The notes under the pieces were generated by a model. That model searched no databases. It was not told where the DNA came from and saw nothing but the letters and a program-made list of their open reading frames with translations. Source: Methylosinus sp. C49 (lineage in GTDB: Bacteria; Pseudomonadota; Alphaproteobacteria; Rhizobiales; Beijerinckiaceae). Taken from it: a DNA stretch of 64,000 nt. The stretch's first letter is position 1. Each line of letters starts with the position of its first letter. Of this stretch, positions 32,649-58,967 are shown piece after piece. Location: NCBI RefSeq assembly GCF_009936375.1, contig NZ_AP022332.1, positions 310,001 to 374,000 on the forward strand. The letters are read 5' to 3'. The translations under genes and the position numbers were made by a program.

Positions 32649-33071
32649 GTGAGCGTGTGCGGAGCCGACATTCAAAGCCGTGATCTGGTTCTGGTAAGCG
32701 TCGATAAGAACGAGGATGGAACTTTCTCCATTGTCGAGAATGCCTGCACCAAAATCCAATTAGCGGGTGACGACCAAGAAACTGTGAGAGGTTTTCGACG
32801 GGCGCTGGCCGGTTTTATTCGGAGCCACGACGTGCGGCGTATTTCCCTGAAAGGCCGGAACACAAACGGAAAATTTGCCGGCGGCGCCGTCGGCTTCAAG
32901 ATTGAAGCGCTGGTCCAGTCGCTCGAAGAATGCGACGTCATGATCATGATGCCGACCACAATAGCATCGCAAGTTCGCAGGCACACACTGACAGCGCCCG
33001 AGAGTTTGTATAAATATCAACACGGTGCATATTTGACAGCGTCCGCGACGTTGGTGAAGTCCGACAAATGA
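32649..33071 (+). CDS. DUF3010 family protein
   Basis: A 140-residue protein starting MSVCGADIQSRDLVLVSVDK. The signature KGRNTNGKFAGGAVGFKIEA (about residues 75-94) is the DUF3010 hallmark; the family has a predicted RNase H-like fold and no assigned function. The start is GTG at 32649. Its last codons overlap the kinase start by 4 bp (ATGA), so the two proteins are translationally coupled. GC content is clearly lower than in the chromosome on either side. Confidence 0.8.
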   Translation: MSVCGADIQSRDLVLVSVDKNEDGTFSIVENACTKIQLAGDDQETVRGFRRALAGFIRSHDVRRISLKGRNTNGKFAGGAVGFKIEALVQSLEECDVMIMMPTTIASQVRRHTLTAPESLYKYQHGAYLTASATLVKSDK

Positions 33072-34159
33072 CCTTTGAGATTGATGCAGGATTGCCCGAG
33101 CCCATCACAAAAACGCTCTCCAGCTTGAGCGACCGTTACAATTTTACCTCCCAGAACACCGAAGGGGGAAATGGCTACGTATTCATCTGTAAAAATACAC
33201 TTCTCGGCACCGAATGCGTCGTGAAATTTTATAATTGGGAAGGAGAGGAGCGCTACCACCTCGAGCCTCAAGCTCTAACTAACTTCAACTCACAAAACTT
33301 GCTCAAGGTACTCGACGCCGGGGTCGCTGACGAGTCCTGGGCATTCTTTGTCACGCCCTACTGTTCCGAAGGGAGCCTCGATTCACATCTGAAATCCAAA
33401 TCCACCGGAAATTTAGAGGCATATAGGATATGCGCTGACATCCTTGACGCACTAACCTATCTGCACTCACAGAGGTATGTCCATCGTGACATCAAGCCCG
33501 GCAATGTGTACCTGCATGAAGGCCACGCGATAGTGGGGGACTTTGGATCTCTCGTCCCGTTACCCGAAGGACACTCTCATGTGAAGGCTTCACGGCATGC
33601 AGTTCTTTACCGCCCCCCTGAATCAATCGTGTCCGACACCTATGGGTTTGCGGGTGACATTTACCAAGCCGGTCTGGTTTTATATCAACTGCTCGGAGGA
33701 AAGCTACCCGTATTAGAAACAGATTTTCTCAGCCCACGGCAGCGCAAAGAATATGATAAACTCAGTTTTCCAGATAATACCATCTATGCTGATAACAACA
33801 TAAAGCAAATAATAGCGAAGGGGAAATTGATCGACATTTCATCGGTCAATTGCTGGGCATCTCCAGCGCTTATCAAAGCTGTACGAAAAGCCACCAGCCC
33901 CGATCCCGCCCGCCGATTCTTATCCGCCGCTGACTTTCTTGGCTTTCTCGCTCAGAATCGTCCGAACATTACGGACTGGTCAATGACTGACGCCGGGCAA
34001 CTTGTTCTGAAGGCGTCACCCACTGAGTATCGAATTTCCGTCAACACGCTCGAAGTGGGTAAGCGCAGGGGAAGCGCATCTTGGCGGACGGACAACACAT
34101 TATCGGGAACTGATTTGCCTTCCATCGTGAAGGAGATCGAAGCAAAGGCATGTGGATAA
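33068..34159 (+). CDS. Serine/threonine protein kinase
   Basis: A 363-residue protein with a complete Hanks-type kinase domain (residues about 20-310). It has a glycine-rich loop TEGGNGYVF, catalytic Lys53 (VVKF), Glu66 in the C-helix, HRDIKPGN at 139-146 (Asp141 catalytic), GDFGS at 157-161 and RPPES in the activation segment. There is no transmembrane or sensor domain; the C-terminal 50 residues form a small extra domain. It overlaps DUF3010 by 4 bp. Soluble kinases in islands are known in abortive-infection systems, but this pairing is not one I recognise. Confidence 0.9.
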   Translation: MTFEIDAGLPEPITKTLSSLSDRYNFTSQNTEGGNGYVFICKNTLLGTECVVKFYNWEGEERYHLEPQALTNFNSQNLLKVLDAGVADESWAFFVTPYCSEGSLDSHLKSKSTGNLEAYRICADILDALTYLHSQRYVHRDIKPGNVYLHEGHAIVGDFGSLVPLPEGHSHVKASRHAVLYRPPESIVSDTYGFAGDIYQAGLVLYQLLGGKLPVLETDFLSPRQRKEYDKLSFPDNTIYADNNIKQIIAKGKLIDISSVNCWASPALIKAVRKATSPDPARRFLSAADFLGFLAQNRPNITDWSMTDAGQLVLKASPTEYRISVNTLEVGKRRGSASWRTDNTLSGTDLPSIVKEIEAKACG

Positions 34160-35640: not shown

Positions 35641-35766
35641 CGGCCCGCGTAGGCCGAGGCGCGCCGATCCTAGATCGATGGTGAACAGGAGCCGTGCCAG
35701 TAGCAGCATTGACAGAAAGCAACCACAGCGGCGATCGTCCAGAATTCCGAATCGGTGGAATTCCCG

Positions 35767-38700
35767 ATGACGCGTGTAGTTCGACAGATTCCCTACGACA
35801 AGTCCGAGGAAAACGAGCCTCGAGTTTTTTCGGAGTTCGTCGATTGCCCGAACATCGTATTGCTTGGCGATCCCGGTGCCGGGAAGACGCATCTTTTCCG
35901 TGAGGCGGCGGCGCGCGAAGACGCGCAATACACCACGGTTCGCAACTTTTTGAACATCCCGGCCTCCCGATTTCGAGGACGGGTGCTGTTCATCGACGCG
36001 CTGGACGAGCGCCGAGCCGGCAGCAAGGACGGTCGAGACATTGTCGACGATGTGGTCAAAAAGCTGTTTGAGATGGCCCCGTCGAAGGTAAGGATCTCCT
36101 GTCGCGCTGTCGATTGGCTCGGCGAAAGCGATCTAGAAGCAATGAAGCCTTTTTTCGATCAGCATGGCGGCGCACGCGTGCTTCACCTCGAATGCTTGAA
36201 CGAGCACGAACAGGTCGAGGTGCTGACCACCAAGAATAGAATAGACGATAGCACGGCGAGGCATTTCACTTTCAATGCAAAGGAACGTGGTCTCGACGAA
36301 TTTCTCCAGAATCCACAAAATCTCATTATGCTCTGGGACGCCACGCAAGGCGGATCATGGCCCGCCACACGCCTGCAACTGCTCGATCTCGCGACGAAAG
36401 AAATGCTCGGCGAGTTCAACTCTGAGCACACCCGATCTAGTGGAGGAGAATTTTCGGCCGCAGAATTGCGCGACGTGGCTGGTGCGATTTGCGCGGCACG
36501 GCTGATCAGCGACGTGGAGGCCGTCAGCTTGGCGAATCTCGAAGGGACGTTGGATATTCCAAGCTATCGCTCCTTCATTTTGTTTTCTCTCGACAAGGTC
36601 CAAGCCGCGCTCCGACGCCGTATTTTCGTTGCTGGCCACGCTCACCAAACGGTCGATTACTCGCATCGCACGACCGCCGAATTTCTCGCTGCCGAGTTCA
36701 TTGCGTCCCGCGTGCGCGACGGATTGCCGTTGGGGCGGGTTTTGGCTTTGCTCGGAATCGACAGGAAGCCTGCGTCCGAATTGAGAGGCCTTCACGCATG
36801 GCTCGCTGTGCATCTGCCCGAGGAATATGCGAAGGAGCTAATCGCAGCCGACCCATACGGGATCCTGACCTATGGCGATGCGGCCTCGTTATCGAGATCA
36901 TCCTGCAAGGCTCTAATCCTCGCTCTCGACAAGCTTTCGAAAGCCGATCCATGGTTCCGATCTGGAAATTGGCCGTCGCCGTCGATAGGCGCACTGGCGC
37001 GTCGGGACATGATCGATGAACTGCGTGGCATTCTGAACGATCCAAACGCGGGATATCATCTGCGGTCCATCGTGATCGAAGCGCTCATGCGCGGGGCGCC
37101 ATTGCCGGAAATGCTGCCCGATCTCGGGGCGGTTCTCGCAAGCCGAGAGTCGTCGTTGCCCGAGCGGCGCAATGCCCTTTTGGCGCTCATGCGCTTCGGC
37201 GATACGGGAAAAGCGGCCATTCGCAGCGTCTACGCCGTGCAGACTTCGGACACTGCGGACGAGCTATGGATCCGGGCGGCGATAATCCAGTCGTTCTACG
37301 GGGAGCCCTACGGCGTTGACGACGTGATCGCTCTGATCAATGCCTCCTATCACGTCCGAAACTCCCTCGGCACGTCGATTCTTTGGGATCTCGCCGACGT
37401 CATTCACGAACGGGATCTTTCAGCCATACTCGACGGAATAGAATCGCTAGAGAACAAGAGGCTTGAACCCGGTACTGGAGTTGGCCCGTTCTACGCGCGC
37501 CTTCTGGTGCGCGCGTGGCCGAATTCGACTTCATTGGAACCCGCTCGCGTCACGCGATGGCTGCATAAGCGCGTGGCGCTCAGGGGCGGACTCGATAAAG
37601 GCCGCGCGCGTGACCTTCGCGCGGCGATGCATGCCACGCCCGAACGACTGCGCGAACTCGCCGAAGATTTCCTGTGCAGCGTTCCGCTGGAGAGTTTTGG
37701 AATTCGTTTCCATAAATTTCAAGAGGCCACTCTTTCGGCATTGAACCAAGAGACTCTGATCGAAATCGCAGAGCGCGTCATTGACGACGCCGAAATAGAA
37801 GGCAGTCGCCGGCTGCGCCTTTACGAGTTCGCCATTTCACTGTCATTCTACATTGAGACACCCGCCACTTTCGAGCGGATTTATCGACGCGCCGACAATG
37901 AAGAGCCGCTTCGCATTGCGCGCGACTCTCTTGTCTTCACGAACCTTCCCGATCGCCATTTTGAGCATCTCTTGGGAAGGCTGAATCAGGACTACGAAGA
38001 TGTAGTCAAATGTCGTCAAGACTTTGATGCAAATATCCAGCTAATCCGCGAGGGGAAGCACTTTGGATGGCTTGGATTGATAGGCGAGGTCTACTTTACA
38101 GGCTACGATGACGTCGATCGAAACGCTTCTCCTCGGGAACGGATTTGTAACTTTCTTGGTGAGGAGCGCGTAGACCTCGCGATCGACGTGCTTTCCGCAA
38201 CGCTATCGCGAGACGATCTCCCCATGTTTCGTGAAGTGATGAGCTATATTGGGGATCACCGTTACCAGCCGTGGTGGTATGCGATCGTCGCTGGGCTCGG
38301 TGAACGTTGGGCCGCAGGACAGGAACTCGGGAACTTCAAGGACGACTTTCTCAAAGCCATGCTCGCTTTCGATATCGCAAATTCGGTTTCAAAAGGGGAA
38401 GAAGAGAGCGAATCCCATCAAGCTATCGGTTCTTGGCGTCGGTCGTTGATCGAAAGTCGTCCCGAACTGGTTAAGGATGCCTATTTCGCCATCGTGCAAC
38501 TTCGCTTCTCACGGGGTGAATCAGTGGTGGATGGATTGCGCGATCTGCTGCACGAACCGGCCTTCGAACCGTTTCGCCCGCAGATCGTTCTCGATCTGCT
38601 TCGAGAATTCCCCGACGCTGACCCCTCCAATCTCGACAATCTTCTGGACGGCGTCATTTCCCTGCCTGCGTCGGCCATTTCTGAGTTTATGGAACTCGCC

Positions 38701-39768
38701 GAACCCATCATCGCCGGCGTCAAAGCTGTCGGTGAACGGCAGAGTGACCTCTGGCTGGCGACAGCCTGTGTGATCGAACCGTGTCGGTTCGCGAACGAAA
38801 TTAGGCAACGAGTGATCGAGCGGAAAAAGATCATATTCGATCTGCGCGACAAAATGGGTGCTGCCCGTCGGAGTCATGGAGCTCAAATCCCGTTGTCGAC
38901 GATCGAGTTCATGGCCAAGCTGACTGGAATGACGTTCGAATATACGCGATGCCCAACCGGAGTTACATTGAGCGGAAATGCGAGTCCATGGGACGCGTCC
39001 GAGCATTTCGTAACGCTGATCGAAATGATCTCGGCTTCGCCGGGTCCATCGGCAACCGAAGCCCTTCAGCGGCTCAGCCGCGATGAGCAGCTCGCGTCCT
39101 ACAAGGACCATATCCTTCATGCGCTGGAAAATCAGCAGCGACGCCGGCTAGACAATGAATACGACCGGCCAGATTGGTCTCGAACCGTGGCGGCGTTGGA
39201 TAATCGTGCGCCTGCCACTGTCTCGGATCTCCATGCCCTGCTCGTTGATCAACTCCACGATCTTTCTGACGTCATCGCTCACGAAAACACGGATCCCTTC
39301 AAGAAGTTTTGGAACGTCAATTCTCATTCAAAGCCGACTGAGCCTCGTCCCGAGGAGGATTGTCGGGATTCGCTAATCGATCTTTTAAGGCCGCGCTTGT
39401 CGCCGGTTGGCATCACCGTCGAACCCGAAGGCCACATGGCGCATGACAAGCGCGCAGACATTTCCGTGGCGATGCCAAGGCGCAAGATCCTCTGCGAGCT
39501 GAAGCGCGATTATCATGCCGAGGTTTGGACGGCGGCGACGGAACAGCTCGACCGATTTTATGCCCATGACCCCGAAGCGAAGGGATACGGCATCTATGTC
39601 GTGTTCTGGTTCGGAGAGAAACGCCCGCGCGATATCCCGTGTCCGCCAAACTGCGCGCCGAGGCCGGAAACAGCCGAGGAAATGGAGCGTATGCTACGCG
39701 ACGCTCTGCCAGGCGAGATGAGCCGTCGATTGGAAGTGATCGTCATCGATGTGTCAGGGAAGGTGTAG
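35767..39768 (+). CDS. Large P-loop NTPase (STAND/NACHT-like) with C-terminal PD-(D/E)XK-like nuclease motif
   Basis: A 1333-residue protein in three parts. The N-terminal NTPase has Walker A GDPGAGKT (residues 34-41) and Walker B VLFIDALDE (73-81), then SHRTTAEFLAAEFIA, typical of NACHT-like winged-helix regions. About 900 residues of helical-repeat-like sequence follow. The C-terminus carries RADISVAMPRRKILCELKRD, a D1231-x12-E1244-x-K1246 arrangement of PD-(D/E)XK nucleases, and the strand YGIYVVFWFG. This sensor-NTPase-plus-nuclease plan resembles Avs-type antiphage proteins, but with the nuclease at the other end. ATG 35767 has GGTGGAA upstream; GTG 35755 is an alternative. It is monocistronic. 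Confidence 0.8.
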   Translation: MTRVVRQIPYDKSEENEPRVFSEFVDCPNIVLLGDPGAGKTHLFREAAAREDAQYTTVRNFLNIPASRFRGRVLFIDALDERRAGSKDGRDIVDDVVKKLFEMAPSKVRISCRAVDWLGESDLEAMKPFFDQHGGARVLHLECLNEHEQVEVLTTKNRIDDSTARHFTFNAKERGLDEFLQNPQNLIMLWDATQGGSWPATRLQLLDLATKEMLGEFNSEHTRSSGGEFSAAELRDVAGAICAARLISDVEAVSLANLEGTLDIPSYRSFILFSLDKVQAALRRRIFVAGHAHQTVDYSHRTTAEFLAAEFIASRVRDGLPLGRVLALLGIDRKPASELRGLHAWLAVHLPEEYAKELIAADPYGILTYGDAASLSRSSCKALILALDKLSKADPWFRSGNWPSPSIGALARRDMIDELRGILNDPNAGYHLRSIVIEALMRGAPLPEMLPDLGAVLASRESSLPERRNALLALMRFGDTGKAAIRSVYAVQTSDTADELWIRAAIIQSFYGEPYGVDDVIALINASYHVRNSLGTSILWDLADVIHERDLSAILDGIESLENKRLEPGTGVGPFYARLLVRAWPNSTSLEPARVTRWLHKRVALRGGLDKGRARDLRAAMHATPERLRELAEDFLCSVPLESFGIRFHKFQEATLSALNQETLIEIAERVIDDAEIEGSRRLRLYEFAISLSFYIETPATFERIYRRADNEEPLRIARDSLVFTNLPDRHFEHLLGRLNQDYEDVVKCRQDFDANIQLIREGKHFGWLGLIGEVYFTGYDDVDRNASPRERICNFLGEERVDLAIDVLSATLSRDDLPMFREVMSYIGDHRYQPWWYAIVAGLGERWAAGQELGNFKDDFLKAMLAFDIANSVSKGEEESESHQAIGSWRRSLIESRPELVKDAYFAIVQLRFSRGESVVDGLRDLLHEPAFEPFRPQIVLDLLREFPDADPSNLDNLLDGVISLPASAISEFMELAEPIIAGVKAVGERQSDLWLATACVIEPCRFANEIRQRVIERKKIIFDLRDKMGAARRSHGAQIPLSTIEFMAKLTGMTFEYTRCPTGVTLSGNASPWDASEHFVTLIEMISASPGPSATEALQRLSRDEQLASYKDHILHALENQQRRRLDNEYDRPDWSRTVAALDNRAPATVSDLHALLVDQLHDLSDVIAHENTDPFKKFWNVNSHSKPTEPRPEEDCRDSLIDLLRPRLSPVGITVEPEGHMAHDKRADISVAMPRRKILCELKRDYHAEVWTAATEQLDRFYAHDPEAKGYGIYVVFWFGEKRPRDIPCPPNCAPRPETAEEMERMLRDALPGEMSRRLEVIVIDVSGKV

Positions 39769-41894: not shown

Positions 41895-42737
41895 ATGGAC
41901 GCCATCGCCGAGAGAGACCGTGATCCCTGCATCACGGTCCAAAAATCCGATCCCTTCGTCCGCGCCGGCCTCGTCCTGTTCGGGGCGCGCTGGAAGGCGC
42001 CGATGGCGCGCTCCCTCGGGGTGACCAGGGAGACGGTGTCGCGGTGGGTCTCCGCCGACGATGTCCCGCCTTGGGCGACGAAGATCGCCCGGCTGATGAT
42101 CGCCGACCGAGGCGCGGTCCTCTCGCTCTGCGACCGCACCGGCAACATGGCGCGCCCTTGGGCCGACGCAGGCTTCGAATGCTTCTGCGTCGACCTCCAG
42201 CATCCCGATGGCGGGCACGCGCGCGACGGCCTCACATGGATCGGCGCCGATGTCCGGGCGTGGCTGCCGCCGCCGCGCCGCTACGCGATCGTGTTCGCCG
42301 CGCCGCCCTGCACGCATCTCGCGGTCAGCGGGGCGCGATGGTTCAAGGAGAAGGGAATGGGCGGCCTGACCGAAGCGATCGAGATCGTCGAGGCCTGCCG
42401 GCGCATCTGCGAATGGAGCGGCGCGCCGTGGATGATCGAGAACCCCGTCAGCACCCTCGGCAGCTATTGGCGGCGCCCGGACTTCTCGTTCCATCCGAAC
42501 GAATTCGGCGGCTACGACGGCGGCGAGGCCGACGATTATCCGAAAAGGACGTGCATATGGACGGGCGGCGGCTTCCGCTTCCCGCAAAAGAGGCCGATCC
42601 CCGTCGGACGTCCGAAGTTCATCAACCACATGCCCGAGACCCCAGACCGGGGAAATCTTCGCAGCGTCACGCCGCCCGGATTCGCACGGGCGGTTTTCGA
42701 GGCGAATGTGGGGAAGCTGCATCTGTGCCGGCGGTGA
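41895..42737 (+). CDS. Phage-type DNA cytosine methyltransferase-like protein with N-terminal HTH
   Basis: A 280-residue protein. Residues about 35-60 form an HTH (MARSLGVTRETVSRWVSADD). The rest matches phage-encoded C5-methyltransferase-like proteins: FAAPPCTHLAVSGARWF (PC motif with catalytic Cys), MIENPVSTLGSYW (ENP in place of ENV) and PKRTCIWTGGGFRFP. The usual target-recognition region is absent, so substrate and activity are uncertain. It could act with the adjacent HNH nuclease as a modification/restriction pair, but such short proteins are also frequent phage orphans. ATG at 41895 is chosen; the frame is open upstream into the HNH gene. Confidence 0.7.
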   Translation: MDAIAERDRDPCITVQKSDPFVRAGLVLFGARWKAPMARSLGVTRETVSRWVSADDVPPWATKIARLMIADRGAVLSLCDRTGNMARPWADAGFECFCVDLQHPDGGHARDGLTWIGADVRAWLPPPRRYAIVFAAPPCTHLAVSGARWFKEKGMGGLTEAIEIVEACRRICEWSGAPWMIENPVSTLGSYWRRPDFSFHPNEFGGYDGGEADDYPKRTCIWTGGGFRFPQKRPIPVGRPKFINHMPETPDRGNLRSVTPPGFARAVFEANVGKLHLCRR

Positions 42738-42889
42738 CGCTATAGCCGGATTTGCATTGTTTCACGGTCGATTATGCCCAGATCATTCCGATGCGCACAT
42801 TGACGTCGTTCAGGACGGTATCCGCATGAACGTCGGTTGCTTTGGGGCCGGTCCTGCCGCAGTGCCCCCTTCTTGCTTTAGGCTAACGG

Positions 42890-42910
42890 ATGTTGCATAG
42901 TATGCAACAT
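42890..42910. promoter_or_regulatory. Palindromic operator overlapping the HTH start codon
   Basis: Two perfect 10-bp arms, ATGTTGCATA and TATGCAACAT, around a central G. The right arm includes the first two bases of the start codon at 42909. A weak -35 (TTGCTT, 42873) lies upstream with the -10 region inside the palindrome. The half-site TATGCAAC recurs twice at 43190-43206. Probable autoregulatory site of the HTH gene. Confidence 0.7.
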
Positions 42911-43268
42911 GAGCCAACCGTTGCAAACATTATCGCAGGCCAAACTGATGTCGGATCTCCGAAGCCATATGAAGGATTCGAGCATTTCCCTTCGAGCGGC
43001 GGCCAAGGATTTGGGCTGGAATGCCTCAACGCTAAATAGACAATTGAGTGGGAGAATAGGTCTCAGGCCCGCGAAAGAGGAAAGAATCCGTGCTTACGTC
43101 TACGGAGCCTCGTCGAGACGAAGGCGGGATGAGGTCGTGGCGGCGGTCAAGAAAATGAGCGATCAGAAGCTTGAGTTAGTGATGCAGTTTATGCAACTTA
43201 TGCAACGTGTGGATGGGTCGGATGTTGACAAGATGGTCAATACCGACAACGGTCCCGGTAAGAGCTAA
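42909..43268 (+). CDS. Small HTH transcriptional regulator
   Basis: A 119-residue protein. Residues about 25-60 form an HTH (SLRAAAKDLGWNASTLNRQL), followed by a basic linker (SSRRRRDEVV) and a helical C-terminus. The start codon lies in a 21-bp perfect palindrome with no Shine-Dalgarno sequence, so the mRNA may be leaderless and the protein autoregulated. It is followed after 10 bp by the AAA ATPase and then the subtilase, all in one direction, so it is the likely control gene of that set. Low GC compared with the core. Confidence 0.75.
   Translation: MSQPLQTLSQAKLMSDLRSHMKDSSISLRAAAKDLGWNASTLNRQLSGRIGLRPAKEERIRAYVYGASSRRRRDEVVAAVKKMSDQKLELVMQFMQLMQRVDGSDVDKMVNTDNGPGKS
43190..43206 (+). repeat. 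Two direct TATGCAAC half-sites inside the HTH gene
   Basis: TATGCAAC at 43190-43197 and 43199-43206 (9-bp period) repeat the half-site of the operator at 42890-42910. They lie about 75 bp before the AAA ATPase start and may form a second regulator-binding site. Coding constraint (codons for MQLMQ) could also explain them. Confidence 0.4.
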
Positions 43269-43278
43269 GGACAAGCCG

Positions 43279-44259
43279 ATGGCAACGGTTCAGCAGATCA
43301 TCGCACTGGTTCGTAGCTACGCCCGTGGAGACGATGAACGGTTCATGGACTTGGCGGATAAAGCTGCCGACGAGGCGGTGCGGCGCGGACAAGCGAAGGC
43401 CGCATCTGAGTTGAAAGCTCTGCTTGTGGAGGCGCGCGGACGACAAGGAGTAATTCAGAAATCCAGAGATCCGATACCCCTGCATCGCCCGCGAGGAGAT
43501 CTTATCGGGATCATGTCCTTGGCGATGCCGGATACGCGTCTGTCTCGCATGGTTCTCAGTGAGGTTCTGCTCAATCGATTGACGAAAGTCGTGAAGGAGC
43601 AGCGCCAGAGAGGCAAATTGATCGAGCGATCGCTAGAGCCGCGTCGAAAATTCCTACTGACGGGTCCGCCCGGAACAGGCAAGACCATGAGCGCAGCAGC
43701 GATCGCGGGTGAGCTCGGGCTGCCTCTTTTCACGGTGTTGCTGGACGGTTTAATCACCAAGTTCATGGGAGAGACTGCGGCAAAGCTGAGATTGGTGTTC
43801 GAGGCCATGACCGAACGCCGAGGCGTTTATTTCTTCGACGAGGTTGACGCTTTGGCTACCAGTCGAGGCGCCGACAACGACGTCGGTGAAGCGCGAAGAA
43901 TATTGAACTCATTCCTTCAGTTTCTGGACGAGGACAAGAGCACGAGTTTGATCTTCGCTGCGACCAACCATCCAGAGCTTCTGGACAAGGCCTTTTTTAG
44001 GAGATTTCAGGCAACGATCGAATATGCCCTCCCAGAAGACGAGCTTGTTCGTCCCATCATCGAGAACGCGATCTACGCGTTCGATCTCGTCGAGATCGAC
44101 TGGGAATTGGTTTTGGAACACTCCCGAGGTCTGAGTCATGCCGACCTTGTCGCCGCGAGCAACGATGCCGCCAGAGATGCTGTGCTCGACCACGACGGCA
44201 AGATCAATACGCAGATATTGATCGGCTCGCTCAAGGAAAATCGTCGACACCCCCGTTGA
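43279..44259 (+). CDS. AAA+ ATPase paired with the subtilase
   Basis: A 326-residue protein with an N-terminal helical region (1-120) and one AAA+ domain: Walker A GPPGTGKT (129-136), Walker B VYFFDEVD (183-190), sensor-1 ATN in FAATNHPELLD, and Arg finger in AFFRRF. It resembles the classic AAA of FtsH/katanin-type ATPases but lacks a protease or membrane domain. TAAGGAC precedes the ATG. The gene sits 10 bp after the HTH gene and 30 bp before the subtilase, so it probably works with that protease, for example as a regulator or substrate remodeler. Confidence 0.9.
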   Translation: MATVQQIIALVRSYARGDDERFMDLADKAADEAVRRGQAKAASELKALLVEARGRQGVIQKSRDPIPLHRPRGDLIGIMSLAMPDTRLSRMVLSEVLLNRLTKVVKEQRQRGKLIERSLEPRRKFLLTGPPGTGKTMSAAAIAGELGLPLFTVLLDGLITKFMGETAAKLRLVFEAMTERRGVYFFDEVDALATSRGADNDVGEARRILNSFLQFLDEDKSTSLIFAATNHPELLDKAFFRRFQATIEYALPEDELVRPIIENAIYAFDLVEIDWELVLEHSRGLSHADLVAASNDAARDAVLDHDGKINTQILIGSLKENRRHPR

Positions 44260-44289
44260 CAAAAATCGGCGATATGCGAATTCAGATTC

Positions 44290-46806
44290 ATGGCAAAGAC
44301 GATCTATCCTCACCTTCTTCTTGATCTCAAGGCTTACAGCATCCCCTTCACGCCAATTGGTGGAGGACCAAAGCCACCCAAGCCGCCAACAGTGCCCATG
44401 CGCGCCCGTCATGCGGCACGTCTGCGTGACTCGATCGAACGAGCCCTCGATGCCAAAGGTGAAAATCTGAAGAATCTCGGGGTGAAATCCCCTGAACGTC
44501 ATGGGCTTCAGTTGACGGCAAAGTCGCGCAGTAAGATTGGATTGAGAATCGATCCAATCCAGAAATCTGGCGGCCCCATCGAGCTTTTGTCGCTGCGAGA
44601 CGAAGGGCAACGCCAGCGTGGTATTGTTTATTTGCCAGAAGAAAAGCTGGACACCGTTTTTAAAAGACTCGAACGTTACGGCTCTTATGCGAAGGGCAAG
44701 CCCAACAATGGTAGTCGGCCACCCGATGGATTCTGGTTCTTTGAAAGTGCGGCCGATCTGACGGCTACGTCTGTCGAGGATCTTTGGTTCGGGGATCCCG
44801 AGACGCGCCCTCGAGCGGGCGAGGAAGCCGAATGGGAAATCTGGATCCGCCCAGATTCCACACAGATCATAAGGAGCTTCGCACGAAATCTTCAGTTACG
44901 ATGTAGTTTCGGTCAGATCGATTTTCCCGGCGTGTCGATCATGAGAATTCATTCGACTTCAGACAGCATTGAAAGGCTGGCGCTCGTTACGGGCGCTATT
45001 TTGGAGCTTCGACCTTGTTCAAGCCTCGTCTTGGAAGTGCTGAATCTTAATAATTCCACCGCATTCAAGCTTTCGAATAAGGTAAAAGAAGGAATCGAAC
45101 CTCCAGCCGACGATGCACCGCGCATCTGCATTCTCGATTCTGGAGTTCACGACGCCCATCCCTTGTTGGCTCCAGCTCTGCCTCCCGAACGATGCCGCAC
45201 TCTGAACGACGCTTGGGGCGCCGATGGATGGTGTAGTCACGGCACAAACGTCGCGGGAATAGCTCTCTATCCGAACTTGAAGGCAGTGTTGGCTGGAGGA
45301 ACTGTCGGACGGTTGCCTGTCGCCTTGGAGTCGGTGACAGTCTTGAGACCGAGGAGCGGGCCCAAGTATTCAACCGAGGCCGCTGGAGTGGTCGCGTCCG
45401 CCGTGGCGATGGTGGAGGCCGCTGAGGAAGCGAAGAGAAGGGTGTTCTGTTTAGCGGCTGCCGATTACGATTGCAGCGCCGACGGCGCCCCAACGAGTTT
45501 TTCAGCATCCGTTGACCAACTCGCTTGGGGACAGAATGCAAGTCCACGCCTGTTTTGCGTGGCCGCAGGGAACGTGCTGGACGACCCGCTCAAGGCCTCT
45601 GGGTACCCAACGCGTAACGAACAATCAGGAATTCCGTCTCCAGGACAAGCTCTGAACGCGCTTACGATAGGAGGTTGCACTTTCGTTTCGGAGCATCCCC
45701 ACGGTGGCGGATTGCTTGTCAAGCACGGTGACCTTGCTCCCACCGCGCGCACTAGTCTCTCCTGGTCCCAAAAGCGTTCTTCCATCAAGCCAGATGTCGT
45801 CTACGAAGCAGGAAACTGTGGAATCACTCCGGGTAGCGATGATGTTGAGTCGCTGCCAGAGCTTGGTGTCCTGACGACACATAAGGGGAGTGGTCTTTTT
45901 GGAACTCTCATGGAGACTAGCGCGGCAACGGCCGCCGTTTCGGGAATGGCAGGGCGCTTGATGGCGGCCAATCCGAACCTTTGGCCCGAGACGATACGCG
46001 GACTCATAGTCCATTCCACGGATTGGACGGATTCCATGCTTGCGCGAGTCGCGCATCTGGAAAACCAAGAACGGATCGAAACCCTATTAGCGATGTTCGG
46101 ATGGGGTGTTCCCGACGAAAAGAACGCCAATCGGAGTGCTTCCGATCATCTGACAATGATCATACAAGACGAAATGGCGCCCCTTACGGTGCGCAGCGGA
46201 GAAATTCGTACAAATAATCTTTCATACTATGAGCTTCCTTGGCCTGTCGCCGCCTTGGCTGATCTCGGGAAAGTCGACGTAGAGCTGAGGGTAACTCTTT
46301 CATATTTCATCGAACCTGACGTGAGGGCTGGATCGATGCAAAACCTTCGAAAATATCCATCGCATCGGTTCGGCTTCGATCTGAAAGGTCCAGATGATAC
46401 CCATATCGACGCGGTAAGGCGGTCAAATCGTGCTTTTTCGTCCGCCGGCCAGCCGCCCGTCCCGACCCGGACCGAGCGCGGCTGGCAGCTAGGATCGAAG
46501 CTTCGACAGCGCGGCTCAATACATCATGACCGATGGTGCGGGCAGGCTCGAGAACTCGCAAGACAGGGTGGAATTCGCGTATTTCCTAAAGGGGGCTGGT
46601 GGGCAGACCAGCAAAACTTAAATTACGCAGATGTGTCGGCGCGCTTCAGTCTCATTATTAGTATTCAGACGCCGGAAAACACGGTTGACATCTATAGTCA
46701 AACTCGCTCCGCCGCCATAAAGTTGGCGCGAACCCGCAATGAATCCTTGACGGCGTTGGAGAGGATCGAGACGACCTCGCCGGTGGTCAGCAAATCGCGG
46801 CGCTAA
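44290..46806 (+). CDS. Large intracellular S8 (subtilisin-like) peptidase
   Basis: An 838-residue subtilase without a signal peptide. The N-terminal 275 residues have no recognised domain. The S8 domain carries Asp283 (ICILDSGVHDAHPLL), His317 (WCSHGTNVAGIAL), oxyanion Asn428 (VAAGN) and Ser544 (METSAATAAVSG; the usual GTSMA is changed to ETSAA). The C-terminal 250 residues form an extra domain with WELP-like and beta-rich segments. With no export signal and an AAA ATPase 30 bp upstream, it probably acts in the cytoplasm under ATPase control. Such protease-ATPase pairs fit a toxic effector that must be restrained. Confidence 0.9.
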   Translation: MAKTIYPHLLLDLKAYSIPFTPIGGGPKPPKPPTVPMRARHAARLRDSIERALDAKGENLKNLGVKSPERHGLQLTAKSRSKIGLRIDPIQKSGGPIELLSLRDEGQRQRGIVYLPEEKLDTVFKRLERYGSYAKGKPNNGSRPPDGFWFFESAADLTATSVEDLWFGDPETRPRAGEEAEWEIWIRPDSTQIIRSFARNLQLRCSFGQIDFPGVSIMRIHSTSDSIERLALVTGAILELRPCSSLVLEVLNLNNSTAFKLSNKVKEGIEPPADDAPRICILDSGVHDAHPLLAPALPPERCRTLNDAWGADGWCSHGTNVAGIALYPNLKAVLAGGTVGRLPVALESVTVLRPRSGPKYSTEAAGVVASAVAMVEAAEEAKRRVFCLAAADYDCSADGAPTSFSASVDQLAWGQNASPRLFCVAAGNVLDDPLKASGYPTRNEQSGIPSPGQALNALTIGGCTFVSEHPHGGGLLVKHGDLAPTARTSLSWSQKRSSIKPDVVYEAGNCGITPGSDDVESLPELGVLTTHKGSGLFGTLMETSAATAAVSGMAGRLMAANPNLWPETIRGLIVHSTDWTDSMLARVAHLENQERIETLLAMFGWGVPDEKNANRSASDHLTMIIQDEMAPLTVRSGEIRTNNLSYYELPWPVAALADLGKVDVELRVTLSYFIEPDVRAGSMQNLRKYPSHRFGFDLKGPDDTHIDAVRRSNRAFSSAGQPPVPTRTERGWQLGSKLRQRGSIHHDRWCGQARELARQGGIRVFPKGGWWADQQNLNYADVSARFSLIISIQTPENTVDIYSQTRSAAIKLARTRNESLTALERIETTSPVVSKSRR

Positions 46807-46828
46807 ACCATTTTCAGCCGTCGCCTCA

Positions 46829-47986
46829 TCACTCAAGCGGAGCAGTTACGAGACCTTGACCAAAATCGTTCACGTCAAATGCGCTCCCGAACATATCTCG
46901 ACGAACATTACTCAGAAGGTGAGATCGAACGACATCGGCTGTAGGATTCAAACCTTGTTTACGCAGTTTCTCCCACCATAGGGCAGCAACTCCAGCAACG
47001 TGGGGACAAGCCATGCTCGTTCCGCTGTGGGTCTCGTATCCACCGCCGGAAAGTGCCGATGTAATTCGTACTCCAGGTGCGCATAGCGTTGCGTCAGAGT
47101 TCGAGAAATCCGCGACAGAGTAGGAGGATCCGTCCTGCCCAATTGCCGCAACCGAAACGACACCGTCTGCCGCCGCCGGCAGACTCGCGCCGACTTTGTA
47201 TTCTGCATTTATGGCGCGCCGACTCTCGTTTCCTGCCGCAGCCACTATTAAAGGAGAAGTCCCGAATGCACCCCTCGATCGAAACATGTTCAAGATCGAA
47301 TCGAACATCCGAAGGTTGTTGCGATATATGTTGAGGACTTTCGAAACCGCAATGTCGTCGGGCCATCCGTCACTACGGTATCCATCAACCATCCCAGGAA
47401 AATCGAAACCCAGCGACATGGAGATGATATGAGCTTTTGATTCCATAGCCCATGTAAGCGCATTGAATAGCTGCTCGGAACTGTCGCCACCGTTGTTTCC
47501 GATTACCTTTCCGACAAAAGCTTTGCTGACGCCTCGCGCGACTCCGATCCTATCGGGGCAATCGCGTCCGAAAATTACACCGGCACAATGAGTTCCGTGA
47601 CCATCATTGTCACCGTTCCCCTCGCCGGTGAAGTCTCTCTCGTTGATGTCGACGCCCGCGAAGGCTTTATGCTTCGAGTCGATGCCCGTATCTAGCACCG
47701 CCATGATGACGCCATCGCCTGTGAACGGACTTGTATCTGCCTTGACTGCGGCGACCCCCCAATTCCCCTGTCCGTTCTTCTCGCCCTGGGTAGAAGTGGG
47801 CCCAATAAGACGAATAGGCATGCTACGCGCCATAGCCATGGTCTTCTGGTCTCTTGAGACCTCCACCGCAGATTTATCGTCCAAATCCAAAACACGCGTT
47901 TCAATCGTTTCGTTGTCAGCCGACGCAGGGCGAAGCGAATTCCGATTCGTTTCCTTTTTCCGCTCCAAGATAAAATACTTTGCCAT
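46829..47986 (-). CDS. Intracellular S8 (subtilisin-like) peptidase
   Basis: A 385-residue subtilase with canonical motifs: Asp99 (AVLDTGIDSKHKAF), His130 (NDGHGTHCAGVIF), oxyanion Asn253 (VAAAGN) and Ser324 (SGTSMACPHVAG). The first 75 residues look like a short pro-region or inhibitor-like domain (YFILERKKETNRN). There is no signal peptide. It is convergent with the larger subtilase, 22 bp apart, and could be a separate module or the second protease of the same locus. Low GC, like its neighbours. Confidence 0.9.
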   Translation of the reverse strand: MAKYFILERKKETNRNSLRPASADNETIETRVLDLDDKSAVEVSRDQKTMAMARSMPIRLIGPTSTQGEKNGQGNWGVAAVKADTSPFTGDGVIMAVLDTGIDSKHKAFAGVDINERDFTGEGNGDNDGHGTHCAGVIFGRDCPDRIGVARGVSKAFVGKVIGNNGGDSSEQLFNALTWAMESKAHIISMSLGFDFPGMVDGYRSDGWPDDIAVSKVLNIYRNNLRMFDSILNMFRSRGAFGTSPLIVAAAGNESRRAINAEYKVGASLPAAADGVVSVAAIGQDGSSYSVADFSNSDATLCAPGVRITSALSGGGYETHSGTSMACPHVAGVAALWWEKLRKQGLNPTADVVRSHLLSNVRRDMFGSAFDVNDFGQGLVTAPLE

Positions 47987-48606
47987 GCGAACGGCCCTTT
48001 TCGATAGAGAATTTCGTGCGCCAACTTTGAACTTCCTGCCGAATCAGGAAGCCTAATGTGAGTGGAATCGGCTTATAAAACCTCATGCTGCACACTGCAC
48101 TAAGCCATCACTTTTACCGTCGCAGGAGCGTTCTGTTTTCGCAAGCGGATTCCATACGAGTTCTGCGGGGCCCGAGTTTCCTTACACGACGCCTCGGAAC
48201 CTGATCGTCGTCCACATTTCGCAACACCTCAAAAATTTTCCTAAACCCGACTCGACTCCGTTCACGGACTGTTCTAGTTTCCCCGCCATGAGCACGAACC
48301 CCACGATACGCGTCGAACGCGAAGCCGAAGAACGGCTGCCGAAAGGCGGCCGCTCGGCTCCGTTCGTCCTCCGCGGAGCCCGCCGACATTAGGCGCGCTG
48401 GAGGACGCCCCGCGTGTGAGTGTCTTCCCATGAGTTCGTTCTTCCCCCTCTCCGTCCTGATCGCCGGCGCCTGTCGCGCCGCATTCGAACGCCGGCCCGG
48501 CGCGACGCGCGCCTGAGCGCGCTCCCCGTCCGCCGGGCCTTCCCCCCTTCGAACAGCGATTCACCGCGCCGGCGCCCCGCCCGCGCGAACGACGGAGCTT
48601 TTTCCA
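47987..48606. other. 620-bp intergenic region with two short ORFs
   Basis: No supported full-length gene. Two short plus-strand ORFs precede the DUF6634 gene: 48288-48392 (34 aa, MSTNPTIRVEREAEERLPKG) and 48430-48516 (28 aa, MSSFFPLSVLIAGACRAAFE). They may be leader or small proteins of the downstream operon, but neither is supported beyond being open. The left part is AT-rich and probably holds the promoter of the minus-strand subtilase. Confidence 0.35.
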
Positions 48607-48945
48607 ATGTCCAAGACCTCCACCATCTTCTTCGACGCCGACATCGACGTGCTGGCCGCGCGGACGCGCACGCTGGCCGACGATCTCGCGCGCCTTCACG
48701 CCGACGGCTGCCCTACCGACGCCGATCTCGCCGACGCGCCGCTGCTCGACAATTGGGTCGTCGCGGCGCGCATGCTCCCCGCGCTGGCCGGCTCGGTTTT
48801 CGGCCATCCCGTGATGGGCGACCGCCCGCGGATCATCACCTCGGACCTGTTCGCGCTCGACGCCGCCGCCGGCTGGGCGCGCACGGCGGGCCGCTTCTAT
48901 CGCCTCGGTCGTCCCGGCGGCGCGGCGCGCGGGAGGGACCAATGA
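48607..48945 (+). CDS. DUF6634-like protein
   Basis: A 112-residue acidic protein (ARTRTLADDLARLHADG, then PLLDNWVVAARMLPALAGSV and SDLFALDAAAGWARTAGRFY). The ending with WARTxxRxYRLG matches DUF6634, a family frequent on alphaproteobacterial mobile elements and of unknown function. The stop overlaps the AAA-M41 start by 4 bp (ATGA), so it is the first gene of a coupled set. Strongly GC-rich, unlike the subtilase genes next door, so it belongs to a different cargo module. Confidence 0.65.
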   Translation: MSKTSTIFFDADIDVLAARTRTLADDLARLHADGCPTDADLADAPLLDNWVVAARMLPALAGSVFGHPVMGDRPRIITSDLFALDAAAGWARTAGRFYRLGRPGGAARGRDQ

Positions 48946-50945
48946 GCAAGCTCTCGGACCTCCAAGGAAACGACGACGACGACCTCTTCGACCGTCCCGA
49001 CGACGATACGCCCGCGCCCGGCAGCGTCGCCGACGCGCTCGCGGGGGCGTGCCTCGGGGCGGCCCTGCCGGCGGATCTGCGCCGGCGCATCCGTCGCGGC
49101 GCCACGGTGGCCATCATCGTCCAAGCGCCTGGCGCCGACTGGTGCGGCCCGCTGGCGCGCGCCGTCCGCAAGGATCCGCAGAAGATCGTCTGCGTGTCGC
49201 GGGACGGCTCTGCCCGCCGCGACCACGATCCCGCGCACGGCAACGACGGCGTCGCGGCGGATCTCGCGGGCGGGCGTTCCGTCATCGGCGTCTCGCAGGA
49301 TCCGCCGCAGTTCCTGCCGTCGACGCTGGTCGCCGTCGCCGACGCGCATGTCCACGTCCGCGCGCCCGGCGCCAAGATCCTGCGGTCGCTGCTGCGGAAG
49401 TATGCGAGCGGACGCGTTCCCGACGCGCTTCCCGACGTCTCGACGCTCGGCTTCCATGAGATCGTGGCCTGCTTCCGCCCGGGCGCGGCGGCGCGCGACG
49501 TCGTCGCCAATCTGGTGCGGATCGCCGACGCCGGGAAGACGGCGACCGTCGCCGGCGCCGACGACGCGCCGCCGATCGACTGCCTGCCCGCCGATCTGCG
49601 CCGGTTGGCGCAGGACATCGCGTCGGGCGTCGCCGACTATCGCGCCGGTCGAATCCGCTGGCGCGACGTGCGGACGCCGGGCGTGCTGCTCGCCGGCCCG
49701 CCCGGCGCGGGAAAGACGACCTTCGCCGCCGCTCTCGCGAAGGCGCTCGACGTCCCGCTGATCGTCGATTCCTGCGGACGCATGTTCGCCCGCAGCGGCG
49801 ACGCCGGCCATCTCGGCACGATCGCCAGAGCGATGCAGGACGTCTGCGACGCGGCGCGGGCCGCCGCCACCAAAGGCGCCAGCATCCTTTGCCTCGACGA
49901 GTTCGAGGCGGCCTGTCCCGACCGGGCGTCGATGGACCGGCGCGGCCGCGACTTCTGGACGCCGATCGTCACCCTGGTGCTGACCCTGCTCGAGGATCAC
50001 GCCGGCGTGATCGTGGTCGCCGCCTCGAATTTCGCCGACGCGGTCGACGCCGCCGCCGTCAGGCCGGGCCGGCTGACGCGCATCGACGTCGCTCCGCCCG
50101 GAGCGGACACGCTCGCGCGGATCCTGCGCTGGCGGCTCGGCGACGCGCTTTCGGGCGTCTCGGACGCCGATCTCGTCGCGACGATCCGCCTCGCCGGGCC
50201 CAGCGCGACGCCGGCCCATGCGGCGCATTGGGCGCGCGACGTCCTCCACGCCGCCCGCGACGCGCGCCGCGACGCCGGGCTCGACGACCTGCTGCGCGTC
50301 GTGGCGCCGCCCGATCATCGCTCGCCCGCCGACCGGCGCGTCGCCGCCGTCCATGAGGCCGGGCATTGCGTCGCCTATCGCGACGCCGGGCTGACCATCG
50401 CCTCGACGTCGATCGTCGCGCGCGGCGACTCCGGCGGGGAGACCCGCGCCGCCGGGCGTCCCTCGATGTTCCCGACGCGCGCCGATCTCGACGCCGGCGT
50501 CGTGATCCTGCTCGCGGGACGTTCCGCCGAGGAGATCGTCCTCGGCGCCGCGTCCACGGGCGCCGTCATCGATCTCGCGATGGCGACGCGCGCGCTGGCC
50601 GACGGTCTCGGCGCCCACGGGCTGGGCGACACGCTGCTGCATCGCTCCGACCCGGCGGCGACGCTGACCTTCGACCACGGGCTGCGCGCCGCCGTGGAGG
50701 CCGATCTCGCCAGGCTCCACGCCCGCGCGCTCGACCTGATCCGCCGGCGCCGCGCCGACGTCGAGCGCATCGCCGACGCGCTGCTGACGAGACGGTTCCT
50801 GACCGGGGACGACGTCGCCGTCCTGCTGGCGCCGCCGCCGGTCCGCAGCGGCGGCCCGAAGAGCGGGGCGAAGGACGCCAAGCCCGGCCCGAAGGTTCGC
50901 GGCCCCAAGGTTCGCGGACCGAAGATTCGCGGGAGGAATTCATGA
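48942..50945 (+). CDS. AAA+ ATPase fused to M41 (FtsH-like) peptidase
   Basis: A 667-residue soluble protein. The AAA+ domain has Walker A GPPGAGKT (252-259), Walker B SILCLDEFEA (314-323) and the arginine pair in RPGRLTR. The C-terminal peptidase domain has the zinc motif HEAGH at 471-475 and the expected third ligand region (STGAVIDLAMAT). Unlike FtsH it has no N-terminal membrane segments and is preceded by a 250-residue unique domain. It ends in a basic tail with repeats of KVRGPK. GGGAGGG precedes the ATG. It probably degrades specific proteins in the cytoplasm; similar genes occur on alphaproteobacterial integrative elements. Confidence 0.9.
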   Translation: MSKLSDLQGNDDDDLFDRPDDDTPAPGSVADALAGACLGAALPADLRRRIRRGATVAIIVQAPGADWCGPLARAVRKDPQKIVCVSRDGSARRDHDPAHGNDGVAADLAGGRSVIGVSQDPPQFLPSTLVAVADAHVHVRAPGAKILRSLLRKYASGRVPDALPDVSTLGFHEIVACFRPGAAARDVVANLVRIADAGKTATVAGADDAPPIDCLPADLRRLAQDIASGVADYRAGRIRWRDVRTPGVLLAGPPGAGKTTFAAALAKALDVPLIVDSCGRMFARSGDAGHLGTIARAMQDVCDAARAAATKGASILCLDEFEAACPDRASMDRRGRDFWTPIVTLVLTLLEDHAGVIVVAASNFADAVDAAAVRPGRLTRIDVAPPGADTLARILRWRLGDALSGVSDADLVATIRLAGPSATPAHAAHWARDVLHAARDARRDAGLDDLLRVVAPPDHRSPADRRVAAVHEAGHCVAYRDAGLTIASTSIVARGDSGGETRAAGRPSMFPTRADLDAGVVILLAGRSAEEIVLGAASTGAVIDLAMATRALADGLGAHGLGDTLLHRSDPAATLTFDHGLRAAVEADLARLHARALDLIRRRRADVERIADALLTRRFLTGDDVAVLLAPPPVRSGGPKSGAKDAKPGPKVRGPKVRGPKIRGRNS

Positions 50946-57926: not shown

Positions 57927-58967
57927 ATGCCGAACGACGACAAGAACCAGCCTGTCCATTTGATCGAAGACGAGAAGACGGGTGACCGGTTTCTCGTCTA
58001 CGGCACAGATAAGGGCTTGCGTCTCGACATTCGATACGCCGGCGACACGCTTTGGATGACACAGTCTCAAATCGGCGAACTTTTCGGACGAGATGTCTCA
58101 ACGATTTCAAGGCATATTGCAAATGTGGTGGAAGAAGGAGAGCTCGACGAATCGACTTCTTTGCAGAAAGTGCAAACAACTACCGGTAGGCCCGCTACGG
58201 TCTACAGCATCGATATGGTGATTTCCGTTGGCTATCGGGTATCCTCAGCCCAGGCCACGCTTTTCAGACGGTGGGCGACCGAAAAGCTAGTTCAATTCGC
58301 GACCAAAGGCTTTGTAGTCGATACCAATCGCCTCAAGCAGCCAGAACATGCCGACAGGGTAGCTGAACTACGCGAGATCATCCGAGATATCAGATCAGAC
58401 GAGGCGAACGTCTACCGTGAGCTGCGTAGTATTTGCGCGATGTGCCAGGATTATGATGGGTCATCCGAAACTTGGCAGGAGTTCTATCGGACAACCCAGG
58501 CAAAGCTTCTATACGCCGTCACGACTCATACGCCCGCCGAGATCATTGCCGCGCGAGCCAATGCGAAGGCCCCAAACATGGGCCTCACCAATTGGCCAAA
58601 CGATAACATCCGTAAGCAAGACGTGGCCGTGTCAAAAAGCTATCTTGCTGATGCGGAAATCAAGGAGCTGAACCGATTAACGACGATTCTATTGGATATC
58701 TTCGAGGACCAACTCGAGTTGGGCAGACTCATCATCATGGAAGACGCACGGCGATTGTTAGATCAACAGCTACGATCATTAAGTCGCACCCTGTTGACGC
58801 ATGGCGGTCGGATCAAGATGAGCGACGCCAAGAAGCACGCGGAAAAACAATACGAAATCTTTGACGCTGGACGCAAGATTGAGCGACAGAAAGCTGCCGA
58901 TCGTATAATCGCCGAATTGAGGCAGTCCGACAAATCACTACCGAAGTCTACGCGCCGCAAGCCGTAA
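57927..58967 (+). CDS. rhuM: RhuM family protein
   Basis: A 346-residue RhuM-type protein: TLWMTQSQIGELFGRDVSTI and SRHIANVVEEGELDE form the N-terminal DNA-binding-like domain. SIDMVISVGYRVSSAQATLF with RRWATEKL follows, and the C-terminal region includes LNRLTTILLDIFEDQLELGR. RhuM is named from a Salmonella pathogenicity-island gene; its molecular function is unknown, and related proteins occur with phage and defence genes. It is lower in GC than the core and lies just outside the island's right boundary, next to a decayed toxin-antitoxin module. Confidence 0.9.
   Translation: MPNDDKNQPVHLIEDEKTGDRFLVYGTDKGLRLDIRYAGDTLWMTQSQIGELFGRDVSTISRHIANVVEEGELDESTSLQKVQTTTGRPATVYSIDMVISVGYRVSSAQATLFRRWATEKLVQFATKGFVVDTNRLKQPEHADRVAELREIIRDIRSDEANVYRELRSICAMCQDYDGSSETWQEFYRTTQAKLLYAVTTHTPAEIIAARANAKAPNMGLTNWPNDNIRKQDVAVSKSYLADAEIKELNRLTTILLDIFEDQLELGRLIIMEDARRLLDQQLRSLSRTLLTHGGRIKMSDAKKHAEKQYEIFDAGRKIERQKAADRIIAELRQSDKSLPKSTRRKP

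What the first reader, a model, noticed from the sequence alone, without database searches (positions are those of the whole stretch)
42890..46806. HTH-AAA ATPase-subtilase operon as a candidate undescribed defence system
A small HTH regulator with an overlapping operator, an AAA+ ATPase and an 838-residue cytoplasmic subtilase form a tight operon (10 and 30 bp gaps) on a defence-rich island. All protease catalytic residues (D283, H317, N428, S544) are present, and no export signal is seen. A protease gated by an ATPase fits an abortive-infection design. The catalytic serine motif is ETSAA instead of GTSMA.
Basis: partly seen in the sequence, partly recalled or inferred. Interest (0 to 1): 0.8.

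Follow-up and report, generated by a model that had tools for sequence, protein, structure and literature searches.

The report
Known IetAS defence pair, with regulator
These genes are a distant copy of the already described bacterial anti-phage and toxin-antitoxin pair IetAS, here with a small DNA-binding regulator in front and a second protease gene facing its tail, an arrangement that a branch of its relatives partly shares.

Summary
An HTH gene (42909-43268), an AAA+ ATPase (43279-44259) and an 838-aa subtilase (44290-46806) lie on one strand with gaps of 10 and 30 bp. A perfect 10+1+10 inverted repeat overlaps the HTH start codon. The claim "undescribed" does not hold: ATPase and protease are IetA and IetS (PADLOC 2.4e-70 and 5.4e-40), a pair described as toxin-antitoxin on pTiC58 and SGI1 and listed as anti-phage. 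ETSAA is not odd: 23 of 24 aligned IetS proteins lack the G of GTSMA and 19 of 24 have TSAA. What is new is modest. The window belongs to a supported IetAS clade in which 5 of 7 members carry a small HTH gene before ietA and 5 of 7 have a homologous CHAT (caspase-fold) gene tail-to-tail with ietS. The window has a different protease, an S8 subtilase, in that spot. Most likely mechanism, inferred: a cytoplasmic protease toxin held by its ATPase partner and released on infection, with an autoregulating HTH protein. Nothing beyond sequence and a predicted fold was tested.

The parts
42890..42910 (.). perfect inverted repeat (10+1+10), candidate operator overlapping the HTH start codon
   Evidence: the upstream regions of L005, L193, L194 and L234 hold no inverted repeat with arms above 7, so it is not conserved
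43180..43206 (+). two further partial copies of the repeat inside the 3' end of the HTH gene, about 75-100 bp before ietA
   Evidence: 78% and 72% to the reference copy; may simply be coding sequence
42909..43268 (+). small HTH protein, 119 aa (P0001), probable autoregulator
   Evidence: Pfam HTH_31 22.9 bits, below its cut-off of 27; similar HTH ORFs before ietA in L005, L193, L194, L234
43279..44259 (+). IetA, AAA+ ATPase, 326 aa (P0002); a GTG at 43207 in the same frame would give 350 aa, but relatives align from the ATG
   Evidence: PADLOC IetA 2.4e-70, NCBIfam NF042959 1.2e-58 below cut-off, Pfam AAA 8e-30
44290..46806 (+). IetS, S8 subtilase, 838 aa (P0003)
   Evidence: PADLOC IetS 5.4e-40, Pfam Peptidase_S8 1.2e-38, model pTM 0.72, the 50 PDB fold matches shown are subtilisin-type proteases
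46829..47986 (-). second S8 subtilase, 385 aa (P0004), tail-to-tail with ietS, 22 bp between stop codons; neighbour whose link to IetAS is unproven
   Evidence: Pfam Peptidase_S8 2.6e-38; PADLOC 'subtilase' 2.4e-21; lies where sister loci have a CHAT gene

Best explanation
This is an IetAS module: IetA (AAA+ ATPase) followed by IetS (cytoplasmic subtilase), of a clade that often carries a small HTH gene in front. Inferred mechanism: IetS is a protease that harms the cell when free. IetA binds it and keeps it in check, or remodels it, and loss of that control during phage infection (or loss of the element) lets IetS cut host or phage proteins and stop growth. The HTH protein probably represses its own promoter through the repeat at 42890-42910 and so sets the dose of the pair. 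Shown here: homology, gene order, intact active sites, clade membership. Inferred: toxicity, neutralisation, trigger, targets, and repression by the HTH protein.
For: Best PADLOC and NCBIfam matches of both proteins are IetA and IetS. An IetS-like ORF lies directly downstream on the same strand in 23 of 26 genome loci, in 46 of 64 loci of a larger set that includes those 26, and within 1 kb in 16 of 18 more, three of these short or in pieces (L193, L198, L201). Catalytic and Walker motifs are conserved. IetA is 54% identical over 288 aa to the ATP-binding protein next to an S8 peptidase on pTiC58, the plasmid where such a pair was first described (reference seen). In SGI1 the homologous pair acted as toxin (subtilisin-like) and antitoxin (AAA-ATPase) in E. 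coli (PMC5006074, section 4 read). The HTH gene is found in 5 of 7 clade members.
Against: Bit scores are far below the NCBIfam equivalog cut-offs (199 of 510 and 55 of 900), so this is a remote member whose function may differ. IetS is only 27-38% identical to the relatives compared and sits on a long branch. No sigma-70-like promoter was found in 42700-48700 (2.5 expected by chance), and the repeat is not conserved in the other HTH-bearing loci. 12 of 64 loci have IetA, at least 1.8 kb downstream and no IetS ORF (three of the 12, L121-L123, look like one sequence). SGI1's pair gave no post-segregational killing from its own promoter.
Confidence: 0.85

Rival explanations
1. The pair mainly stabilises the mobile island (toxin-antitoxin addiction) and phage defence is secondary or absent.
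For: The relatives of SGI1 and pTiC58 were described as maintenance or stability systems (title and reference in PMC5006074). 415 plasmid records carry an IetA relative at E 1e-40, 303 of them called conjugative. The window copy sits in a low-G+C region with an integrase.
Against: PADLOC and NCBIfam file the family as anti-phage. SGI1's pair gave no killing of plasmid-free cells from its own promoter. Addiction and defence are not exclusive.
Confidence: 0.3
2. The HTH gene is an unrelated neighbour, not part of the module.
For: P0001 found no relative in 149 family and 385 class genomes except in the window's own genome and none in the plasmid collection. BLASTP of P0001 against the L005 HTH gave no alignment. 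Two of 7 clade members lack it (L113, L197). The three-sequence model also gives weak HTH matches elsewhere in 34 of 149 family genomes at E 0.01 (own genome counted).
Against: P0001 and the L005 HTH align along most of their length with local score 51 against 27.9 +/- 5.0 in 1000 shuffles, 0.2% as high; the MerR-like L012 control reached only 2.4%. The model of three members finds further HTH ORFs 10 and 9 nt before ietA in L194 (1.5e-10) and L234 (3.5e-9).
Confidence: 0.15
3. An undescribed defence system.
For: Low identity of IetS; extra HTH gene; second protease tail-to-tail.
Against: The core proteins match IetA (residues 1-321 of 326) and IetS (188-817 of 838).
Confidence: 0.03
4. A housekeeping ATP-dependent protease, such as an FtsH- or proteasome-ATPase-like machine with its peptidase.
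For: The ATPase domain also matches FtsH and proteasome-activating nucleotidase models.
Against: Patchy distribution: 16 of 149 family genomes have a match at E 1e-30, eight of them between 1e-46 and 1e-31 and so perhaps other AAA+ proteins; 8 of 372 class genomes at E 1e-55; own genome counted in both. Mobile context.
Confidence: 0.02

Closest known systems
IetAS / Gao_ietAS (PADLOC IetA, IetS; NCBIfam NF042959 IteA, NF042956 IteS)
   Same: AAA+ ATPase followed by a large cytoplasmic S8 subtilase, matching most of both PADLOC profiles
   Different: scores below the NCBIfam equivalog cut-offs; upstream HTH; a second subtilase tail-to-tail
ietA-ietS of pTiC58 (cited in PMC5006074; the original paper is not held)
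   Same: ATPase 54% identical over 288 aa; ATPase then S8 peptidase, 3-bp gap
   Different: no HTH-like ORF seen by eye in the 0.6 kb before the ATPase; outside the window's clade. The record does not name the genes; the identification is mine
sgiAT of SGI1 (PMC5006074)
   Same: AAA-ATPase antitoxin plus subtilisin-like toxin, shown in E. coli (section 4 read)
   Different: not compared directly here
clusters of CHAT, caspase, TIR and trypsin-like genes (conflict systems with effector-associated domains; class name recalled, EAD1 and nSTAND1)
   Same: relatives of the second subtilase P0004 sit beside other peptidase genes in 6 of 7 places examined
   Different: in the window P0004 is beside IetAS, with no such partner recognised

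Membership tests
IetAS | AAA+ ATPase of the IetA family | tested here: met
   PADLOC PDLC02196 2.4e-70 over residues 1-321; motifs intact
IetAS | S8 subtilase of the IetS family with intact catalytic residues | tested here: met
   PADLOC PDLC02198 5.4e-40, residues 188-817; D283, H317, N428, S544
IetAS | ietA directly upstream of ietS on one strand | tested here: met
   30-bp gap; same order in 23 of 26 loci
IetAS (NCBIfam equivalog) | score above NCBI's curated cut-offs | tested here: not met
   199.1 of 510 and 55.3 of 900 bits: a relative, not an equivalog
IetAS | protection against phage | not testable with these tools
   needs a phage challenge
IetAS as toxin-antitoxin | IetS toxic alone, IetA neutralises | not testable with these tools
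   shown for the SGI1 relatives (PMC5006074)
HTH-bearing IetAS clade | supported common branch | tested here: met
   IetA tree 99/93, 7 rows; IetS tree SH-aLRT 100, 8 rows, quick method, window flagged as a long row of unsure place
HTH-bearing IetAS clade | upstream HTH gene of one family | tested here: met
   window, L005, L193, L194, L234 of 7; not found in L113 and L197
HTH-bearing IetAS clade | CHAT gene tail-to-tail with ietS | tested here: not met
   present in L005, L113, L194, L197, L234; the window has the S8 P0004 instead, and L193 a short IetS ORF and no CHAT

The most novel reading that the evidence does not exclude
In this clade IetAS is one arm of a two-protease system: the ATPase-gated subtilase works with a second protease encoded tail-to-tail (a CHAT caspase-fold protein in the sister loci, an S8 subtilase in the window), one activating or cutting the other, with the HTH protein setting the level. 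The second protease would be an exchangeable cartridge.
Probability: 0.13. Interest if true: 0.6.

Novelty: new variant of a known kind. Interest (0 to 1): 0.33.

Why it matters
The mechanism of IetAS was still called unknown in papers of 2023 and 2025 (PMC9958689 and PMC11878078, passages seen). A clade with its own regulator and often a second protease gene beside it gives a concrete handle on how the protease is controlled and what it cuts. For the finding itself, the main message is that it should be filed as IetAS, not as a new system.

Tried and rejected
Undescribed system: rejected. ETSAA as a special motif: rejected (TSAA in 19 of 24; the G is missing in 23 of 24). Unrelated regulators do occur: an XRE-like protein overlapping the start of ietA in L125 (recognised by eye) and a MerR-like one in L012 (just below the Pfam cut-off). 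Conserved operator: rejected. A P0004-like subtilase as a regular neighbour of IetAS: rejected; no P0004 match at E 1e-5 in the 64 loci. An inhibitor-type prodomain in IetS: only a lead. The model has the order strand-helix-strand-strand-helix-strand at residues 180-242, before the catalytic domain, as in subtilisin prodomains (recalled), and the best PDB match is a pro-form (3afg), but Pfam finds nothing in residues 1-277, the aligned range was not shown, and TM-scores by query length are low (0.37 or less). Other effectors behind IetS-less IetA genes: looked at by eye in 10 loci, nothing consistent seen. Papers on an HTH or CHAT partner of IetAS: none noticed in the listings; the library lacks most subscription journals, and the two original IetAS papers are not held.

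Limits of the counts. Rows dropped before counting: 54 of the 80 loci and 49 of the 80 (short or weak AAA+ matches). The sum is 62 of 82 loci with IetS; my later script counted 61 because it did not take L118. L234 was fetched through its CHAT gene, although its ATPase was already hit H5; without it the clade counts are 4 of 6 for both HTH and CHAT. P0001, L005 and L193 built the HTH model, so only L194 and L234 are independent finds; likewise L005, L113, L194 and L234 built the CHAT model. The loci are related, so the Fisher values (7.7e-7 for HTH, 3.8e-6 for CHAT) overstate the case. The CHAT model tests one CHAT family only.

Full report
What is there. Three genes lie on the + strand with gaps of 10 and 30 bp: a 119-aa HTH protein (42909-43268), a 326-aa AAA+ ATPase (43279-44259) and an 838-aa S8 subtilase (44290-46806). 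A perfect inverted repeat of 10+1+10 at 42890-42910 overlaps the HTH start codon. Directly behind, on the other strand, is a second subtilase of 385 aa (46829-47986), whose stop codon lies 22 bp from that of the first.

What it is. The PADLOC library calls the ATPase IetA (2.4e-70) and the large subtilase IetS (5.4e-40). The best NCBIfam match of each is the anti-phage model for the same pair, but far below the equivalog cut-offs, so this is a remote member. An IetS-like ORF follows the ATPase in 23 of 26 genome loci, in 46 of 64 when family genomes and IMG/VR loci are added to those 26, and in 16 of 18 further loci, three of them with a short or broken protease. Of the 18 misses, 6 have less than 800 bp downstream of the ATPase and 12 have at least 1.8 kb. 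The ATPase is 54% identical over 288 aa to the ATP-binding protein beside an S8 peptidase on pTiC58; the record does not name those genes ietA and ietS, so that identification is mine. In SGI1 the homologous pair acted as a toxin (subtilisin-like protease) and an antitoxin (AAA-ATPase) in E. coli, though without post-segregational killing from its own promoter (PMC5006074, section 4 read). Two other papers treat IetAS as an anti-phage system of unknown mechanism (PMC9958689, PMC11878078; passages seen).

The supposed odd motif. In 24 aligned IetS proteins the G of GTSMA is missing in 23, and 19 have TSAA. ETSAA is therefore the ordinary form of this family.

Structure. An AlphaFold2 model from 34 sequences has pLDDT 80.5 and pTM 0.72. 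The best PDB matches are subtilases, among them ProN-Tk-SP (3afg), KP-43 (1wmd) and SubHal (5fax). No solved relative of IetS was found by sequence at E 0.001. The order of strands and helices at 180-242 is that of a subtilisin prodomain (recalled), which would make IetS a self-inhibited enzyme; Pfam did not confirm it.

The regulator. P0001 alone finds no relative in 149 family or 385 class genomes beyond its own genome, nor in the plasmid collection, and BLASTP does not align it with the L005 HTH. Reading upstream ORFs of IetA loci by eye turned up similar HTH proteins in L005 (Bradyrhizobiaceae) and on the Methylorubrum extorquens AM1 megaplasmid (L193). The local alignment score of P0001 and the L005 protein was reached by 2 of 1000 shuffles. 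A model of the three found two more: in Rhizobium acidisoli (L194, E 1.5e-10, not in the record's gene table) and Agrobacterium sp. S7/73 (L234, E 3.5e-9). All five end 10 nt or less before ietA or overlap it. The same model gave weak HTH segments in 34 of 149 family genomes at E 0.01, own genome counted, which I take as generic HTH matches.

The clade. In a tree of 71 IetA proteins the window groups with L113, L193, L005, L194, L197 and L234 at 99/93 support, the window branching first; pTiC58 lies outside. An IetS tree by a quicker method gives the same group plus L233 at SH-aLRT 100, but flags the window as a long row of unsure place. The HTH gene is found in 5 of 7 clade members and 0 of 75 other loci. 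A CHAT protein of about 620 aa lies tail-to-tail with ietS in 5 of 7 (L005, L113, L194, L197, L234), of one family: 28-50% identical among four of them, and the L197 copy 47% identical to that of L194. It was found in 0 of 53 other loci with sequence downstream. A sixth copy (L233) faces a shorter IetS with no IetA recognised. The window lacks the CHAT gene and has the subtilase P0004 there. For P0004, 4 of 21 matching plasmid records and 3 of 4 matching family genomes other than its own were examined. In six of these seven places the neighbours include other peptidases (caspase, CHAT or trypsin-like, some with EAD1, TIR or nSTAND1 nearby; record annotations; Pfam). In the seventh, L239, none was seen by eye. 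I infer, weakly, that the CHAT gene and P0004 come from one pool of protease-based conflict modules and may cooperate with IetAS. Tail-to-tail placement may also reflect shared mobility alone.

How it most likely works. Shown: homology, order, intact active sites, clade and neighbours. Inferred: IetS is a toxic cytoplasmic protease; IetA restrains it; infection or loss of the element frees it; the HTH protein tunes expression. The main rival is island stabilisation without a real defence role.

Verdict. The sequence description is right, the claim of a new system is wrong. The remaining novelty is a regulator-bearing IetAS variant that often has a second protease gene beside it.

Noticed in passing
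35755-39768 (+): A 1337-aa ORF with a P-loop-like start (GDPGAGKT) and no Pfam or PADLOC match at 0.001; possibly a STAND-like NTPase.
   Followed up: no
48942-50945 (+): A 667-aa AAA+ protein with a Peptidase_M41 domain (FtsH-like) in a stretch of 65-76% G+C, preceded by a DUF6634 protein at 48607-48945.
   Followed up: partly
33068-34159 (+): A protein kinase whose domain matches PADLOC defence kinases (mad6 1.2e-35, PD-T4-6 2.1e-26); may be a general kinase match.
   Followed up: no
57927-58967 (+): A RhuM-family protein matching PADLOC candidate PDC-S05 at 2.6e-122.
   Followed up: no
L117, L119, L121-L123, L131, L140-L143 (IMG/VR) and L004, L016: IetA-like ATPases with at least 1.8 kb downstream but no IetS ORF; those in viral contigs could be antitoxin decoys.
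   Followed up: partly
L233 5902-9672: CHAT gene facing a 617-aa IetS-like protein with no IetA recognised, on a Bradyrhizobium plasmid.
   Followed up: partly
L005 13486-14856 and L113 11402-12529: The gene before the CHAT gene is an LCAT-like lipase in L005 and a metallo-beta-lactamase-fold protein in L113.
   Followed up: partly
L194 4658-4990 and L193 4640-4990: HTH genes before ietA that are not in the plasmid gene tables; those tables are incomplete by design, and that of L193's record lists one feature in all.
   Followed up: yes
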